From assembly GCA_021785315.1 (NCBI GenBank), contig JAJYFX010000005.1, positions 1 to 17,658 on the forward strand: 17,658 nt of DNA, in the 5' to 3' direction. The notes beneath the pieces were generated by a model. It ran no database searches, was not told the origin of the DNA, and was given only the letters and a program-made list of their open reading frames with translations. A program made the translations under genes and the position numbers. Origin of the DNA: Actinomycetes bacterium (GTDB lineage: Bacteria > Actinomycetota > Acidimicrobiia > Acidimicrobiales > Acidimicrobiaceae). Of the stretch, positions 12,610 to 17,602 are shown one piece after another. Every line of letters starts with the position of its first letter. Position 1 is the stretch's first letter.

Positions 12610-13104
12610 TTAATTAAAAACGGCTTTTTTGAACTGGATAAGTAGCCCTACGTATGAAATGAGTGCAATAAACGTCAGTAGAGTCAGGAGTTCGAGAATT
12701 CTGGACCCCATCAAAAGGTTGATAACGAAAAGGACAAAAGTACTCGCGAGAAGGACCGTGAGTATGTTTTTACGACGTTTGAGCATTTGGTGATGGGCGA
12801 GGCGGGGGACCCTTGTATTGAAGCTACCCACTCTGTTCGGCTGTGAACTCAGCATTCGGTACTGATCTTGCAAGACGATTTCAGGCTCGACCCGACCGAA
12901 CTTAGTAAGAATAGTCCAAGATGAACTGCGGACTGCCTGCCTGCCAGGAATAGCGGTCATCGAAGTTGAACACTGGTGACCCAATACCCCAAGGGACTTA
13001 GAGAAGCTGCCAACTGAAGCAACATGACGCGAATCTCGCCATCTCACAATTAGTGGAATGGTGATGACGGCCGCCCACATTGATGCAACAATCGCCAGTA
13101 GCAT
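12610..13104 (-). CDS. Small three-helix membrane protein, GLPR/SepX-like candidate
   Basis: A 164-residue protein. An N-terminal membrane helix (about 2–20) ends in PLIVRWRDSRH. A polar region of about 90 residues follows, then LKRRKN leads into a helical hairpin (about 114–133 and 137–156) ending YVGLLIQFKK. That layout, with a short helix running into a P-L-x-x-R-x-R-D type junction and an Arg-rich patch before a helix pair, matches my memory of actinobacterial GLPR/SepX-type membrane proteins (M. tuberculosis Rv0996 is the galU–moeA-linked relative). Those proteins recruit or anchor the MoeA-like protein Glp at the divisome. The gene closes the series galU, moeA, moaA, moaC, consistent with this reading. 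It has ATG 13104 with a weak AAGGA site. A 133-base AT-rich gap precedes it, so it may have its own promoter. The family call is inference. Confidence 0.6.
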   Translation of the reverse strand: MLLAIVASMWAAVITIPLIVRWRDSRHVASVGSFSKSLGVLGHQCSTSMTAIPGRQAVRSSSWTILTKFGRVEPEIVLQDQYRMLSSQPNRVGSFNTRVPRLAHHQMLKRRKNILTVLLASTFVLFVINLLMGSRILELLTLLTFIALISYVGLLIQFKKAVFN

Positions 13105-13237
13105 TTATCAACAATTCCTTAAACTACAAATGTGTAATTACAAATATATCAAGCAAATTGCGGCTGTGCTTTTATATTTGAATAATTTTTACTACACACG
13201 AGTTTTTTGAGTGCGTAATTTTCGAATCTGTGGAAAA
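13105..13237 (-). promoter_or_regulatory. AT-rich spacer, possible promoter of the small membrane-protein gene
   Basis: The region is much richer in A/T than its flanks: 18 G/C in the 60 bases 13141–13200. It is the longest gap inside the minus-strand series. Several TATA-like stretches exist, but no −35/−10 pair with standard spacing stands out, so only a general promoter role is suggested. Confidence 0.3.
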
Positions 13238-13744
13238 CTAAAGGTTGAGTTCAGGAAGAGCGTCAGCTCCAGGTCTCTTCCAAAGGCCTGATCTGCCACC
13301 AACTTTTTCCCAAAGGGCCAGTTCACCGATGACCATAGTTCTATCCGCTGACTTGCACATATCGTAAACTGTGAGCGCAGCCACTGAGCATGCGGTGAGC
13401 GCTTCCATCTCGACTCCAGTGCGGTCCACAGTCTCTACTTGAGCTTCGATCTCAACGTAGTCGTCACCTATAGTGAAATTGATATAGATTGAGCCCACTA
13501 ACAGTGGATGGCACAAAGGGATGAGATCCGGGGTTCTCTTTGCTGCCTGAATACCAGCAATTCTCGCAGCTCCAAGAACGTCGCCTTTGGTAATTGCGTT
13601 GCTGGCAACTTTAGCGGTTGTTTCAGGCAACATGAAGACTTTGCACCTGGCAGTTGCGCGTCGGTGGGTGGGATCTTTGGGCGTAACATCGACCATGCGC
13701 GCTCGGCCGAGCGGGTCAATGTGGGTGAGGCTGCGGTCAGACAT
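13238..13744 (-). CDS. moaC: Cyclic pyranopterin monophosphate synthase MoaC
   Basis: Catalyses the second half of the first step of molybdenum-cofactor synthesis: it converts the MoaA product 3',8-cyclo-GTP into cyclic pyranopterin monophosphate. The 168 residues are the usual full length. Family marks are LTHIDPLGRARMVDV at the start, LIPLCHPL (about 74–81), VEMEALTACSVAALTVYDMCK with catalytic Asp128 and Lys131, and a WEKVGGRSG segment near the end. ATG 13744 is the natural start. It follows moaA on the same strand with 79 bases between, so MoaA and MoaC, which act consecutively, are probably made from one message. Confidence 0.97.
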   Translation of the reverse strand: MSDRSLTHIDPLGRARMVDVTPKDPTHRRATARCKVFMLPETTAKVASNAITKGDVLGAARIAGIQAAKRTPDLIPLCHPLLVGSIYINFTIGDDYVEIEAQVETVDRTGVEMEALTACSVAALTVYDMCKSADRTMVIGELALWEKVGGRSGLWKRPGADALPELNL

Positions 13745-13823
13745 TAGTTAATCCAAGGCCTTTCTTTACTGTGCGCTAAATCTGTAAATCGTTACTCTGC
13801 AAATTGATTCTAGGTATAACTGA

Positions 13824-14840
13824 TTAACCGCCGATTTGGCTCATAGATCTCGGCGGCCTGACAAAGTTGACTTTTCCGATGGCGTGGCCTGCCCATTTAG
13901 TTCCAACGGCTGAGCTTATTTCTTTGATTAGATCCTTGTCGCTTCCGCCCGATCGAAGGATTGCTCTAAGGTCGAAATCATTTACGGCAAAAAGACATGT
14001 CATAAACTTACCTTCGGCGGTTAGCCGGACCCGATCGCAATCGCCGCAAAATGGCTTTGTGACTGACGGTATTACGCCAATTTCCCCCATGCCGTCTTTA
14101 AATCTGAATCGTTGAGCCGGCTCAGGTCCATGAGATACGGGTTCAAGGGGGTAAACGTCGTTGATTTTCTCAACGATTTCATCTGCGGGAACCACCTTGT
14201 CCATGGTCCATGCGCCGTCAGCATCGAGTGGCATGAACTCAATGAATCGCGGCTGGAGCCCTTTGTCGCGTGCGAAAGTGGCGAAATCAACGATTTCGTT
14301 ATCATTCGTACCCCGTATCATCACGATGTTAAGTTTGATCGGGTCAAATCCAGCTTCAATAGCGGCGTCGATTCCGTCAAGAACCTTATCGAGATGATTT
14401 CGTCTAGCCATCAAGAAAAAAATATTTGGATCAAGTGAATCCAAGGAAATATTCAACCGGCCAAGGCCCGCAGCTTTCAGATCCTCAGCTATCAGCCTCA
14501 GTGAAGATCCGTTTGTCGTCATTGCGAGGTCCACGGGTTTGTTTGTCGACGGAATTATCAATTTAGAAAGTTTTTCAACGAGTACGGGCAGATCAGCACG
14601 GACTGTTGGCTCACCACCCGTAAGGCGTATGCCATCGAAGTCAAAGTGCTCGACAAAGATCTTTGCCAGGCGCGCTATCTCTTCAAAAGACAGCACTTCG
14701 GCTCGATCGAGCCACTTCAGACCTTCTTCCGGCATGCAGTAGGTGCACCGAAAATTGCATCTGTCTGTTATCGAAATTCTAAGATCCCTTACCCTGCGGT
14801 CAAAAGAATCAATGAGTGGGGTGAATCTTTTTGAAGACAC
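13824..14840 (-). CDS. moaA: GTP 3',8-cyclase MoaA
   Basis: Radical-SAM enzyme that starts molybdenum-cofactor synthesis by turning GTP into 3',8-cyclo-GTP. It has 338 residues, normal for the family. The N-terminal [4Fe-4S] site is CNFRCTYC (Cys28, 32, 35), followed by the SAM-binding LTGGEPTVR (73–81). The second, substrate-binding cluster uses Cys265, Cys268 and Cys282 (FCGDCDRVRL…TC). The protein ends in Gly-Gly, the essential tail that enters the active site. The GTG start at 14840 has only a weak upstream AGG, but the N-terminus fits. It sits between moeA and moaC, downstream of a double hairpin in the 76-base moeA–moaA spacer. Confidence 0.97.
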   Translation of the reverse strand: MSSKRFTPLIDSFDRRVRDLRISITDRCNFRCTYCMPEEGLKWLDRAEVLSFEEIARLAKIFVEHFDFDGIRLTGGEPTVRADLPVLVEKLSKLIIPSTNKPVDLAMTTNGSSLRLIAEDLKAAGLGRLNISLDSLDPNIFFLMARRNHLDKVLDGIDAAIEAGFDPIKLNIVMIRGTNDNEIVDFATFARDKGLQPRFIEFMPLDADGAWTMDKVVPADEIVEKINDVYPLEPVSHGPEPAQRFRFKDGMGEIGVIPSVTKPFCGDCDRVRLTAEGKFMTCLFAVNDFDLRAILRSGGSDKDLIKEISSAVGTKWAGHAIGKVNFVRPPRSMSQIGG

Positions 14841-14864
14841 AATTAAAAGCCTACTTTACCAGAT

Positions 14865-14909
14865 TGCAGTAACTGCACGCGGCTCCACCGATCAGCAAGG
14901 GGAGCCACG
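14865..14909 (-). promoter_or_regulatory. Double hairpin in the moeA–moaA spacer
   Basis: Read on the minus strand, CGTGGCTCC and GGAGCCGCG (14901–14909 and 14878–14886) pair over 9 positions with one G·T wobble that is a mismatch on the other strand, indicating RNA made from the minus strand. A second perfect hairpin, TGCAG-TTA-CTGCA (14865–14877), follows at once. The pair begins 7 bases after the moeA stop and has no T-run. It may be a processing or attenuation element setting moaA expression; I do not recognise a known molybdenum-cofactor riboswitch. Confidence 0.4.
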
Positions 14910-14916
14910 TCGAAAT

Positions 14917-16140
14917 TTACAGTACGCGCAGAATCAGCGTGTCTACTGTGTCGCCGGCTTGGTAACCATTTCCGTCTGGGATTATTGCGAGCGCGTTGGA
15001 GTTGGCCATCGAGTAAAGCAGGTGGCTTGACTGACCTGATTGGGGTTCAAGGTGAATCCTCTCGTCCATTCCCCATTTGGCGGTGACCCTCATGAAGTGG
15101 AGTTTTCCGTCGGGATGCCTGCGGATGTCGGTCTCTGTGACAGCAGGTACTGCTGTTCTGAAAAGATTTCGGTGGCCCATCATTTTTCTGATTGCCGGTC
15201 GCGCAAGAAGCTCAAATGAGACAGCCGACGATACCGGATTTCCAGGCAGTCCGAAAACTGGAGTCGAACCGATATGTCCGAATGCGAACGGTTTAGCGGG
15301 CTTGATTGCAATTTGCATCCAGGACATCGTTCCATTTGAGAGTTCGTCAAGGATCTGCTTCGTGTAGTCGAAATCGCCAACGCTGACTCCTCCAGACGAT
15401 AAAAGCACATCACATGATGAGGCTGCTTCCAGAAATCCATGCCGGAGGCTTTCTTTGTCATCCCTGATTGTCCCGAGATCTATGGGTATGGCATTCATTT
15501 CCTTTACCAGACTGAACAGCATGGGCCTGTTTGAGTCGCGAATTTGGCCCGGCTGGAGTGGTCCTGGGCCATCAGCCAGCTCGCTTCCGGTGGAAAGTAT
15601 TCCTACCCTGGCTCGGGGGAATGCCGCTACCTCGGAAATTCCAAGGCTGGCTAAAACCCCGAGGTGGCCTGCAAACAATTGTGAGTTGTTTGGGAAGAGC
15701 AACTGGCCCTGAATTATATCGCTTCCCGCTTTTCTCACATTTTCAAATTCACCGGGCTTTTTTGAAAATGTGAGAAAGCTCTTGCCGTCTTTTTCGGTGA
15801 CGACTGAATCTTCCACCATTAATACACAGTCGGCGCCTTCCGGCATTGGCGCGCCGGTCATGATTCGTACGGTAGCCGAGGCGCTGACAGGAATGTCGCC
15901 AGAGTCGCCGGCTGCAATGGTTCCTATGATTTCGAACTCTTTGGTTCCGGCCCGAACGGACTCGGAATTGAGGGCGAAGCCGTCTACGGCTGTGTTATCG
16001 AACGGAGGTACAGACTCGCTTGCATATATTGCGGCGTAAATAACGAGACCGTCACAGTCCGTGAGCGGGATCTTCCTCGTTTGAAGTTGTGATATGGATT
16101 CAAGGACTTTCTGTTGCGCTTCTTGCAGTTCAATCATCAC
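14917..16140 (-). CDS. moeA: Molybdopterin molybdotransferase MoeA / gephyrin-like Glp
   Basis: Inserts molybdate into adenylylated molybdopterin. The 407 residues are a full-length MoeA. Marks in order: PPFDNTAVDGFAL (about 45–57), RIMTGAPMPEGADCVLMVED, GILSTGSEL and RDSNRPML, SSGGVSVGDFDY, IKPAKPFAFG and GLPGNPVSSAVSFE. Starts are GTG 16140 or ATG 16137, after AGGGAAATTA. It lies 48 bases after galU on the same strand. In mycobacteria and corynebacteria the galU-linked MoeA paralogue (Glp) also binds FtsZ and takes part in division. Here it adjoins moaA and moaC, which argues for a real cofactor role, but a dual role is open given the membrane gene downstream. The coding sequence holds a perfect 17-base inverted repeat (15731–15777). 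Confidence 0.95.
   Translation of the reverse strand: MMIELQEAQQKVLESISQLQTRKIPLTDCDGLVIYAAIYASESVPPFDNTAVDGFALNSESVRAGTKEFEIIGTIAAGDSGDIPVSASATVRIMTGAPMPEGADCVLMVEDSVVTEKDGKSFLTFSKKPGEFENVRKAGSDIIQGQLLFPNNSQLFAGHLGVLASLGISEVAAFPRARVGILSTGSELADGPGPLQPGQIRDSNRPMLFSLVKEMNAIPIDLGTIRDDKESLRHGFLEAASSCDVLLSSGGVSVGDFDYTKQILDELSNGTMSWMQIAIKPAKPFAFGHIGSTPVFGLPGNPVSSAVSFELLARPAIRKMMGHRNLFRTAVPAVTETDIRRHPDGKLHFMRVTAKWGMDERIHLEPQSGQSSHLLYSMANSNALAIIPDGNGYQAGDTVDTLILRVL
15731..15777 (-). repeat. Perfect 17-base inverted repeat inside moeA
   Basis: Left arm tttctcacattttcaaa (15731–15747) and right arm tttgaaaatgtgagaaa (15761–15777) are exact reverse complements around a 13-base loop. The encoded residues are FLTFSKKPGEFENVRK, an ordinary MoeA surface segment. 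The hairpin would form in the mRNA within the moeA reading frame. Confidence 0.9.
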
Positions 16141-16188
16141 TAATTTCCCTAATTGTTTTGCGATTCGAACATCCCAAGCTTACTTACG

Positions 16189-17160
16189 TCACTTGGAGTT
16201 GGGCTTATGGTGCAATCTTCTGGCAAGTGCTCTGACGGACTTGGCGAAAAAGCTCCGTGAGACAGGTGATGTGGTAGTTTTGTCGAGCCTTTCAAGAATT
16301 TCTTTTAGGGTTACCAGGAATTGCGGTCCGAGGTCATCTCTTGCCAAGGCCAACTCGACGATGGCTGTCAGATAATCAATTTTGGTTCCGACGTCGAATC
16401 GCCCACCCTTAATTATGTATCCCAGTACGGGCTGCTTTTTGAGGAGCAAGGAAATGGCATCGGTGAGCTGAATTTCCCCGTTTCTGCCTGGTTTGATTTG
16501 ATCAAGGCATTCGAATAGCTCCGGAGTGAAAATGTACCGACCGATTACCGCGAAGTTGGATGGGGCTTCGTCCGGTTCAGGTTTTTCTGTTATTCCAGTA
16601 ATGCGGACAACGCTGCTTTCATCCGTTTTATCGTAGGCAACGCAGCCATATAGGGAAATGCTCTCATGAGGTACCTCCATGAGCGCCAGAACAGAGCATT
16701 GATGCCGGTCATATAGCTTGAGCATGTCAGAAAGAAGAGGATGGCCGGTGATCATGATGTCGTCAGCTAGCAGAACCGCAAATGGCTCGCCGGATGTGTG
16801 TTGTCTTGCCATTGAGACCGCGTGTCCAAGGCCCAGCGGCTCTCCCTGGCGCACATAATGCAATTCGGCAAGGTCGGAAATAGACCTGACCAGATCCAGC
16901 TCTTCGAGCTTGCCGCTCGACTCGAGATATTTCTCAAGTTCAAATGACTTGTCAAAATGGTCTTCGATAGACCACTTCGATTTTCCCGTAATCACCAGGA
17001 TGTCGTCCAGCTCAGCTGCAACCGCTTCCTCGATTATGTACTGGATTGCAGGCCGATCAACCAGGGGCAGCATCTCCTTTGGCTGAGCTTTTGTCGCCGG
17101 AAGAAGCCGAGTACCGAGTCCGGCGGCAGGTATTACGGCCTTTCGTGGCGTCTGATGCAC
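16189..17160 (-). CDS. galU: UTP–glucose-1-phosphate uridylyltransferase GalU
   Basis: Makes UDP-glucose from UTP and glucose-1-phosphate, a precursor for glycolipids, trehalose and cell-wall sugars. The 323 residues are full length. Family marks: AVIPAAGLGTRLLPATKAQPKEM at the nucleotide-binding loop (given as its first part AVIPAAGLGTRLLP), the metal-binding LLADDI, the sugar-binding GEIQLTDAI, and GGRFDVG near the end. I place the start at GTG 17160 because AAAGGAG lies five bases upstream; GTG 17166 would overlap that site. It heads the minus-strand series galU–moeA–moaA–moaC–membrane gene, and is divergent from the CIRCE-controlled zinc-ribbon gene, a neighbourhood shared with mycobacteria. 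Confidence 0.95.
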   Translation of the reverse strand: MHQTPRKAVIPAAGLGTRLLPATKAQPKEMLPLVDRPAIQYIIEEAVAAELDDILVITGKSKWSIEDHFDKSFELEKYLESSGKLEELDLVRSISDLAELHYVRQGEPLGLGHAVSMARQHTSGEPFAVLLADDIMITGHPLLSDMLKLYDRHQCSVLALMEVPHESISLYGCVAYDKTDESSVVRITGITEKPEPDEAPSNFAVIGRYIFTPELFECLDQIKPGRNGEIQLTDAISLLLKKQPVLGYIIKGGRFDVGTKIDYLTAIVELALARDDLGPQFLVTLKEILERLDKTTTSPVSRSFFAKSVRALARRLHHKPNSK

Positions 17161-17349
17161 AAGCACTCCTTTGCAGCAGTTTGATCATCGCTATTGCCGT
17201 TGCTTGAGAAAGAATCTAACCGTGAATCGCTGGCGCTCGGATGTGACTTGATAACAATTGTATTCGGAAGACTCTTCCTTTGAAAGCAGTGCGGAATGTG
17301 CAAGCATGTGACCAGGGAAAAGATACTTATTCTGATAGACATGGTAGTA
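17161..17349. other. Divergent control region of galU and the zinc-ribbon gene
   Basis: The bases between the galU start and the CIRCE site carry no gene. They should hold the galU promoter on the minus strand and the heat-shock promoter on the plus strand; no −35/−10 pair with good spacing could be picked by eye. Only one CIRCE copy is present, next to the zinc-ribbon gene, so HrcA is unlikely to control galU directly. Confidence 0.5.
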
Positions 17350-17376
17350 TTAGCACTCAGTGTAGTAGAGTGCTAA
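17350..17376 (+). promoter_or_regulatory. CIRCE operator (HrcA-binding site)
   Basis: TTAGCACTC-N9-GAGTGCTAA, an exact match to the CIRCE consensus, with spacer agtgtagta. It lies 28 bases before the GTG start of the zinc-ribbon gene. HrcA binding here would repress transcription until heat or protein-folding stress. A TAGTAT at 17345–17350 overlaps the first base and could be the −10 element, which would put the operator over the transcription start. Confidence 0.95.
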
Positions 17377-17404
17377 TAGAGCTAATGAAACGTGGAGGAA
17401 GTAG

Positions 17405-17602
17405 GTGCCTACCTACGAATATGTGTGCAAGAGCTGCGATCGACAATTTGATGTGTTCCAGTCCTTTTCTGAGGATCCGCTAAGTACTTGCGAAGTGTGC
17501 GGAGGCGAGCTGAAAAAGAAGTTTGGATCTGTTGGAATAATGTTCAAAGGTTCGGGATTTTATAAAACTGACTCCCGTCCAGCAGCGAATTCCGAGTCTT
17601 AG
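17405..17602 (+). CDS. FmdB-family zinc-ribbon protein, Ruc (Rv0991c)-like
   Basis: A 65-residue protein starting MPTYEYVCKSCDRQFDVFQS, the standard FmdB opening, with a four-cysteine zinc ribbon (Cys8, Cys11, Cys29, Cys32) and a Ser/Lys/Gly-rich flexible tail (VGIMFKGSGFYKTDSR). Start GTG 17405 follows GGAGG with six bases between. The mycobacterial member Rv0991c (Ruc) is a chaperone switched on when its zinc cysteines are oxidised, works with Hsp70, and is co-regulated with hsp60/hsp70 genes. The perfect CIRCE site before this gene supports the same role here. The tail is shorter than I recall for Ruc (about 110 residues), so client binding could differ. It is divergent from galU, as in mycobacteria. 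Confidence 0.9.
   Translation: MPTYEYVCKSCDRQFDVFQSFSEDPLSTCEVCGGELKKKFGSVGIMFKGSGFYKTDSRPAANSES

What the first reader, a model, noticed from the sequence alone, without database searches (positions are those of the whole stretch)
17350..17602. CIRCE-controlled FmdB/Ruc-like zinc-ribbon gene outside a chaperonin operon
A letter-perfect CIRCE operator precedes an isolated FmdB-family gene, not groES, groEL or dnaK. Established knowledge: CIRCE is bound by HrcA, and M. tuberculosis Rv0991c (Ruc), of the same family, is a redox-activated chaperone co-regulated with hsp60/hsp70. Together these suggest that placing this small protein in the HrcA regulon is conserved beyond mycobacteria, here with a 65-residue short-tailed version.
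Basis: partly seen in the sequence, partly recalled or inferred. Interest (0 to 1): 0.75.

Follow-up and report, generated by a model that had tools for sequence, protein, structure and literature searches.

The report
Heat-shock switch on small zinc protein
A tiny zinc-binding protein gene carries the same on-off DNA switch that controls bacterial heat-shock chaperones; the pairing was known from the tuberculosis bacterium and turns out to be common in two large classes of the same bacterial phylum, though this copy has only a stub of the floppy tail that its studied relative needs to protect other proteins.

Summary
Confirmed. A perfect CIRCE operator (17350-17376) lies 28 nt before a 65-codon FmdB-family gene (17405-17602); 0 expected by chance. 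Each of the seven closest genomes has one hrcA, one FmdB gene of 65 aa and exactly four CIRCE with at most 2 mismatches: at fmdB and hrcA in all seven, and at groEL or groES-groEL in all ten further copies read. The same four operons form the HrcA regulon of M. tuberculosis, where HrcA represses ruc/Rv0991c (PMC7448276, PMC8557902, passages). So the link is known; the window is a new member. New is the breadth: CIRCE (at most 4 mismatches) precedes 41 of 104 Ruc-type genes read in Acidimicrobiia and 75 of 109 in Actinomycetes, against 1 of 3854 and 0 of 3210 background stretches; a Cys-rich-tailed paralogue family has 0 of 25. CIRCE-linked genes tend to encode long disordered tails; the window's clade is an exception with a conserved 12-residue tail. 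As tail-less M. tuberculosis Ruc is inactive, redox-chaperone activity of this short version is doubtful and untested. No genome is held for the window.

The parts
17342..17350 (+). Putative extended -10 promoter element TGG-TAGTAT, its last base overlapping the operator
   Evidence: Pattern TGGTANNAT invariant in 8 of 8 aligned upstream regions (window + 7 kin); the sigma-70 consensus scan found no -35/-10 pair on this strand, so the promoter is an inference
17350..17376 (+). CIRCE operator (HrcA binding site), TTAGCACTC-N9-GAGTGCTAA, perfect
   Evidence: all 18 arm bases invariant in 8 of 8 sequences, 5 of 9 spacer bases invariant
17394..17398 (+). Ribosome-binding site GGAGG
   Evidence: Sequence; GGAGGAAGTAGGTGCC invariant in 8 of 8
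17405..17602 (+). FmdB/Ruc-type zinc-ribbon protein, 65 aa, GTG start; CxxC at residues 8/11 and 29/32, GSGFYKTDSR motif, 12-residue tail after GSGFY
   Evidence: TIGR02605, PF09723; AlphaFold2 model: three strands within residues 3-39, pLDDT about 75 there, residues 49-57 and 61-65 under 50
16189..17166 (-). Context: galU, divergently transcribed neighbour (not thought to be under the operator)
   Evidence: TIGR01099 345.3 bits over cut-off 326.8; in the class sample CIRCE stays 13-89 nt from the fmdB start while the galU match starts 140-2116 nt from it
14917..16140 (-). Context: MoeA/Glp-type gene of the galU-moeA-moaA-moaC cluster
   Evidence: also beside galU in five kin loci

Best explanation
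This is a single-gene transcription unit for a Ruc-type (FmdB-family) zinc-ribbon protein that belongs to the HrcA heat-shock regulon. At normal temperature HrcA binds the CIRCE, which overlaps the -10 element and probable transcription start, and keeps the gene off; heat or other proteotoxic stress inactivates HrcA and the gene comes on together with hrcA-dnaJ, groES-groEL and groEL. The protein is a relative of M. tuberculosis Ruc (Rv0991c), made in this Acidimicrobiia clade as a 65-residue form with a short conserved tail. Most likely it assists the Hsp70/Hsp60 machinery under combined heat and oxidant stress through its redox-sensitive zinc site. Shown: operator, gene, regulon architecture in the kin, family membership, conservation. 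Inferred: HrcA binding, promoter position, heat induction, redox action.
For: Exact CIRCE with 0 expected. In 7 of 7 nearest genomes: one hrcA over cut-off, one FmdB gene of 65 aa, exactly four CIRCE with at most 2 mismatches. By coordinates these sit at fmdB in 7 of 7 and at hrcA in 7 of 7; dnaJ follows hrcA in the 4 loci read; of the other 14 copies, the 10 read precede groEL (6) or groES-groEL (4), and the 4 unread are assigned by their spacers only. Footprint: operator arms invariant 18 of 18 in 8 sequences, while 11 of 87 positions upstream of TGG are invariant (two rows are cut short there, which lowers this number). Class sample: CIRCE at 41 of 104 Ruc-type and 0 of 25 paralogue-type genes (Fisher p 2.4e-5), background 1 of 3854; all 41 genomes have an hrcA match, 38 of them over the cut-off (tables matched by hand). 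Class Actinomycetes sample: 75 of 109, background 0 of 3210. The counts do not change if the cut is moved from 4 to 6 mismatches. M. tuberculosis: HrcA represses ruc, groES-groEL1, groEL2 and hrcA-dnaJ2 (PMC7448276 and PMC8557902, passages).
Against: No genome is held for the window, so its own hrcA cannot be seen. No expression data. Nearest relatives outside the short-tail clade (L131, L133 and others) have no CIRCE at this gene although their genomes keep CIRCE at hrcA and elsewhere, and CIRCE presence needs at least 28 changes on a weak tree, so membership of the regulon is gained and lost easily. hrcA is found in 153 of 198 class genomes, so it does not by itself predict a CIRCE at fmdB; one CIRCE-fmdB genome of ten checked elsewhere gave no hrcA match. 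RucNterm (residues 1-49) has no chaperone activity in vitro (PMC7448276), and this protein is only 16 residues longer.
Confidence: 0.8

Rival explanations
1. Same HrcA control, but the short-tailed protein is not a holdase: without the long disordered tail it acts as a small redox- or zinc-responsive partner of DnaK/GroEL (sensor or adaptor) or as a zinc/thiol buffer during heat stress.
For: Tail-less Ruc lacks chaperone activity (PMC7448276, passage). The protein is 65 aa in 7 of 7 kin genomes, and the tail reads DSRPAA[SN]S[ED]S in the window and the six kin copies complete in their locus. In both samples CIRCE-linked genes have longer tails than CIRCE-free ones (medians 66 v 48 and 61 v 40.5; tails under 30 residues in 1 of 116 v 22 of 97, the window clade not counted), so the window clade is the odd one out.
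Against: The paper reports tails from about 7 residues upward among Ruc homologues; I saw no test of a short one in the passages read. The tail-CIRCE correlation is only suggestive after correcting for kinship (28 independent pairs, CIRCE-linked longer in 18.4 and shorter in 9.1 on average, median Wilcoxon p 0.010, range 0.0003-0.24; only 2 pairs on well-supported branches).
Confidence: 0.35
2. The operator serves the divergent galU gene (or both genes), not fmdB.
For: CIRCE is palindromic and lies in the galU-fmdB intergenic region; the galU start is 184 nt away.
Against: In the class of the kin the site lies 13-89 nt from the fmdB start while the galU match starts 140-2116 nt from it, or galU is not found (4 of 41); in the Actinomycetes sample no galU was detected in the stretch held (up to about 2.3 kb upstream) at 65 of 75 CIRCE-linked genes. 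In the window and the kin the distance to fmdB is 27-28 nt.
Confidence: 0.03
3. An FmdB-type regulator of formamidase/amide metabolism that happens to have a CIRCE.
For: The family name FmdB comes from that context (recalled).
Against: No formamidase among the ten window ORFs scanned (the rest of the window was not annotated). The protein carries the GSGFYKTD motif of the Ruc-type group and not the Cys-rich tail of the other family, which has no CIRCE (0 of 25); 20 of 39 known non-cysteine positions of M. tuberculosis Ruc are identical.
Confidence: 0.02

Closest known systems
M. tuberculosis Ruc (Rv0991c), HrcA- and SigH-regulated redox chaperone (PMC7448276)
   Same: FmdB-type zinc ribbon with CxxC pairs at 8/11 and 29/32; HrcA site upstream; the kin genomes have CIRCE at the same four kinds of operon; galU/moeA neighbourhood (M. 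tuberculosis gene order recalled; one search did not return the record)
   Different: 65 aa with a 12-residue tail after GSGFY against a long disordered tail required for activity in M. tuberculosis; single gene rather than an operon with rv0990c; no SigH-like site recognised here by eye, not searched systematically
CIRCE/HrcA heat-shock regulon
   Same: Perfect inverted repeat overlapping the probable start of transcription; hrcA, groES-groEL and groEL carry the other copies in kin
   Different: Target is a non-chaperonin small zinc-ribbon gene
Cys-rich-tailed FmdB paralogues of the same class (for example L186, L192)
   Same: TIGR02605 match, zinc ribbon at the N-terminus
   Different: No GSGFY motif, no galU found in the flank (0 of 25), no CIRCE (0 of 25)
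Hsp33
   Same: Redox-controlled zinc site feeding clients to DnaK, by analogy through Ruc (PMC7448276, discussion section)
   Different: The paper finds no sequence similarity beyond the four zinc cysteines; not compared here

Membership tests
FmdB family zinc ribbon (TIGR02605 / PF09723) | Profile match above curated cut-off with two CxxC pairs | tested here: met
   68.5 bits v 31.3 and 58.9 v 34.4; C8, C11, C29, C32
[quoted passage not shown]
   GSGFYKTD motif; 24 of 43 known positions identical to partial Ruc read from printed primers (20 of 39 without the four Cys), against 6-14 of 43 for the 25 paralogues and 8-34 for the 104 Ruc-type rows, all counted without gaps; paralogue group separate on the tree with SH-aLRT 83, weak 57-column tree
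[quoted passage not shown]
   (sequence of the site; binding not tested)
[quoted passage not shown]
   Tail has pLDDT under 50 over most of its length but is only 12-16 residues; homologue tails from about 7 residues are reported (PMC7448276, passage)
[quoted passage not shown]
   Needs purified protein
HrcA/CIRCE regulon | Consensus inverted repeat with 9-nt spacer near the start of transcription | tested here: met
   18 of 18; overlaps TGGTANNAT conserved in 8 of 8; the start of transcription itself is inferred
HrcA/CIRCE regulon | hrcA in the genome | tested here: inconclusive
   Own genome not held; present in 7 of 7 nearest genomes
HrcA/CIRCE regulon | HrcA binding and heat induction | not testable with these tools
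   No expression or binding data

The most novel reading that the evidence does not exclude
Ruc is an old and common member of the HrcA regulon of Actinomycetota, and its disordered tail evolves together with HrcA control: genes that leave the regulon tend to have shorter tails. The window's clade has HrcA control but only a short fixed tail, so it offers a natural Ruc in which the heat-induced zinc-ribbon part works without the holdase tail, for example as a redox sensor or adaptor on DnaK or GroEL.
Probability: 0.25. Interest if true: 0.65.

Novelty: new member of a known kind. Interest (0 to 1): 0.45.

Why it matters
In the held papers that I could find, HrcA control of Ruc is described for M. 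tuberculosis only (searches; most subscription papers are not held). Finding the operator at 116 of 213 Ruc-type genes read in two classes says that this little-studied redox chaperone is a common part of the actinobacterial heat-shock response and predicts heat induction in many species. The short-tailed clade gives a natural test of what the tail is for.

Tried and rejected
Gapped DNA pattern as a count of CIRCE-fmdB pairs: 11 of 198 genomes against 41 genes when upstream DNA of the same genomes was read, so the pattern counts (54 loci in genome contigs; 2 of 119 in the class of the Ignavibacteriales relative) are lower limits. First parsing of FmdB starts used too strict a cysteine filter and lost 83 of 130 loci, largely because many family members have His at the third ligand; corrected. 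Considered and rejected: operator for galU, formamidase regulator (see rivals). The sigma-70 scan gave no hit on this strand. The PDB sequence search gave no family relative (two hits with E 0.19 and 0.79). A fold search was not run because the model's pTM is 0.40. The tree-based test of tail length against CIRCE on well-supported branches had only 2 pairs and decides nothing. Rows dropped before counts: of 139 matches over the cut-off listed, 130 were fetched (not fetched: G005 itself, whose site was already known, and 8 low-scoring ones), and L184 was dropped because its start failed a position rule; of the 150 matches listed ('more matches are not listed'), the 30 best and 80 of the other 120 were read, and L241 was dropped because no ORF passed the filter. 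The Actinomycetes sample therefore leans to well-scoring copies, and its parser prefers ORFs with the GxGFY motif.

Full report
What is there. The window ends with a perfect CIRCE at 17350-17376 (18 of 18 arm bases; 0 of 200 shuffles had a match), a GGAGG at 17394-17398 and a 65-codon gene with GTG start at 17405-17602. The protein matches TIGR02605 (68.5 bits, cut-off 31.3) and PF09723 (58.9, cut-off 34.4). The gene to its left is galU, transcribed away from it, followed by moeA, moaA, moaC and a SepX/GlpR-like gene. In six of six relatives inspected the next long ORF to its right is convergent, so fmdB stands alone.

Who the relatives are. A scan of 84,980 species genomes for a 16-base CIRCE core followed within 8-38 nt by an MPTYEY-type start gave 54 loci, all but two labelled as actinobacteria; L013 is labelled Ignavibacteriales and L017 Rubrivirga, the latter with an actinobacterial-looking protein and probably misbinned. 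Seven loci (L012, L018, L019, L020, L021, L046, L047) form the window's own clade: FmdB 82-88% identical in the six complete in their locus, and GalU 76-78% and MoeA 69-77% identical in the five loci that hold them; the FmdB gene is 65 aa in all seven genomes. One of these records is named Acidimicrobiaceae. The isolate codes look like acid mine sites (recalled, not checked).

Regulon in the kin. All seven genomes have one hrcA over the cut-off, one FmdB gene and exactly four CIRCE with at most 2 mismatches (three further ones with 3 mismatches occur in two genomes). Two of the four sit at fmdB and at hrcA in every genome. Of the other 14 copies the loci of 10 were read: 6 precede a groEL and 4 precede groES-groEL; dnaJ follows hrcA in the 4 loci read. 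M. tuberculosis HrcA controls groES-groEL1, groEL2, hrcA-dnaJ2 and rv0991c-rv0990c (PMC8557902, passages), and HrcA represses ruc, with SigH as activator (PMC7448276, passages; PMC4803200, one passage).

Footprint. In 8 aligned upstream regions all 18 arm bases are invariant, the spacer less so (5 of 9), and the motif TGGTANNAT, ending in the first base of CIRCE, is invariant. This would place the start of transcription inside the operator. The consensus scan finds no -35/-10 pair here, so the promoter is an inference.

How common it is. In 198 genomes of the class, 129 have a TIGR02605 match at E up to 0.001 and 121 a match over the cut-off; 153 have an hrcA match, 147 over the cut-off. Of 130 FmdB loci fetched, 129 gave a start; the best CIRCE within 150 nt has at most 4 mismatches in 41, 6 in one and 7 or more in 87; random stretches of the same loci give at most 4 in 1 of 3854. 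Split by type: Ruc-type (GxGFY motif) 41 of 104, Cys-rich-tailed paralogues 0 of 25 (Fisher p 2.4e-5); a divergent galU in the flank of 81 of 104 and 0 of 25. All 41 CIRCE-linked genomes have an hrcA match (38 over the cut-off), but so do most others, so hrcA alone does not predict it. In 246 genomes of the class of L022 (Candidatus Nanopelagicales, class Actinomycetes), 236 have FmdB; of 109 Ruc-type genes read, 75 have a CIRCE with at most 4 mismatches and the other 34 at least 7, background 0 of 3210. In the two classes the site lies 13-89 and 10-66 nt from the start codon. In total 116 of 213. Outside the phylum, L013 has the pair on the same contig as hrcA, in line with the report that ruc lies in chaperone/hrcA loci in other phyla (PMC7448276).

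Results against a simple story. The nearest relatives outside the clade (L133, L131, then L108, L099, L124, L119, L126) have no CIRCE at fmdB and no galU found in the flank held. Among five genomes with a CIRCE-free fmdB, G133, G062, G109 and G074 hold exactly three CIRCE with at most 3 mismatches and G106 four, one of them beside hrcA in each; G099, a relative with a CIRCE at fmdB, holds seven. So fmdB enters or leaves the regulon while the regulon persists. Of ten genomes of CIRCE-fmdB loci checked elsewhere, one (L031) gave no hrcA match.

The tail. RucNterm (residues 1-49) of M. tuberculosis cannot prevent aggregation (PMC7448276). The window's protein has 12 residues after GSGFY. Tails are longer at CIRCE-linked genes in both classes (medians 66 v 48, p 1.9e-9; 61 v 40.5, p 5.5e-9; 71 representatives at 75% identity, p 5.8e-6). 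Relatedness inflates these p values; with 28 independent pairs on the best tree the median p is 0.010, range 0.0003-0.24, and well-supported branches give only 2 pairs. The window clade goes against the trend. The model shows a small three-stranded part at residues 3-39 and a disordered end (mean pLDDT 64.4, pTM 0.40).

Verdict. A real, conserved operator; the gene is a Ruc-type member of the HrcA regulon by sequence evidence. The regulation is known in M. tuberculosis and is here extended to two classes. No held paper that I found reports this breadth (search listings; PMC7448276: passages and the discussion section; PMC8557902 and PMC4803200: passages). Chaperone activity of the short form is open.

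Noticed in passing
Class sample of G005, loci L096-L225: Many Ruc-type proteins have His instead of the third zinc-ribbon Cys (HxxC): 47 of 104, with 45 Cys and 12 not parsed. A redox switch built on four cysteines would not apply to them unchanged.
   Followed up: partly
Class samples: Tail length of Ruc-type proteins correlates with presence of a CIRCE upstream; suggestive but not proven after correcting for kinship.
   Followed up: partly
L013 2082-2375: Ignavibacteriales fmdB with its own CIRCE on the same contig as dnaJ and hrcA: the pair occurs outside Actinomycetota. A second such hit in that class (L257) was not looked at.
   Followed up: partly
L017, L009, L048: Records labelled Rubrivirga and Bifidobacterium breve carry fmdB genes nearly like those of planktonic actinobacteria in the same list (L010, L029; L005, L044, L053); probably mislabelled or misbinned MAGs.
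   Followed up: no
G106 C34:56895-56949; G099 C38:24459-24518: Tandem CIRCE-like sites a few bases apart; what they precede was not looked at.
   Followed up: no
L031 (G209): CIRCE-fmdB present but no hrcA match found in this genome, the one miss of ten; incompleteness or real loss not decided.
   Followed up: no
G001-G007, groEL and groES CIRCE copies: The 9-nt spacer of the groEL-type CIRCE (TCAATACTA) is identical in 7 of 7 kin genomes and that of the groES-type copy is the same in 5 of 7, unlike the more variable spacer at fmdB.
   Followed up: no
window 12610-17166: galU-moeA-moaA-moaC-SepX/GlpR-like cluster; the MoeA protein scores on both MoeA and Glp (divisome) models below their cut-offs.
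   Followed up: no
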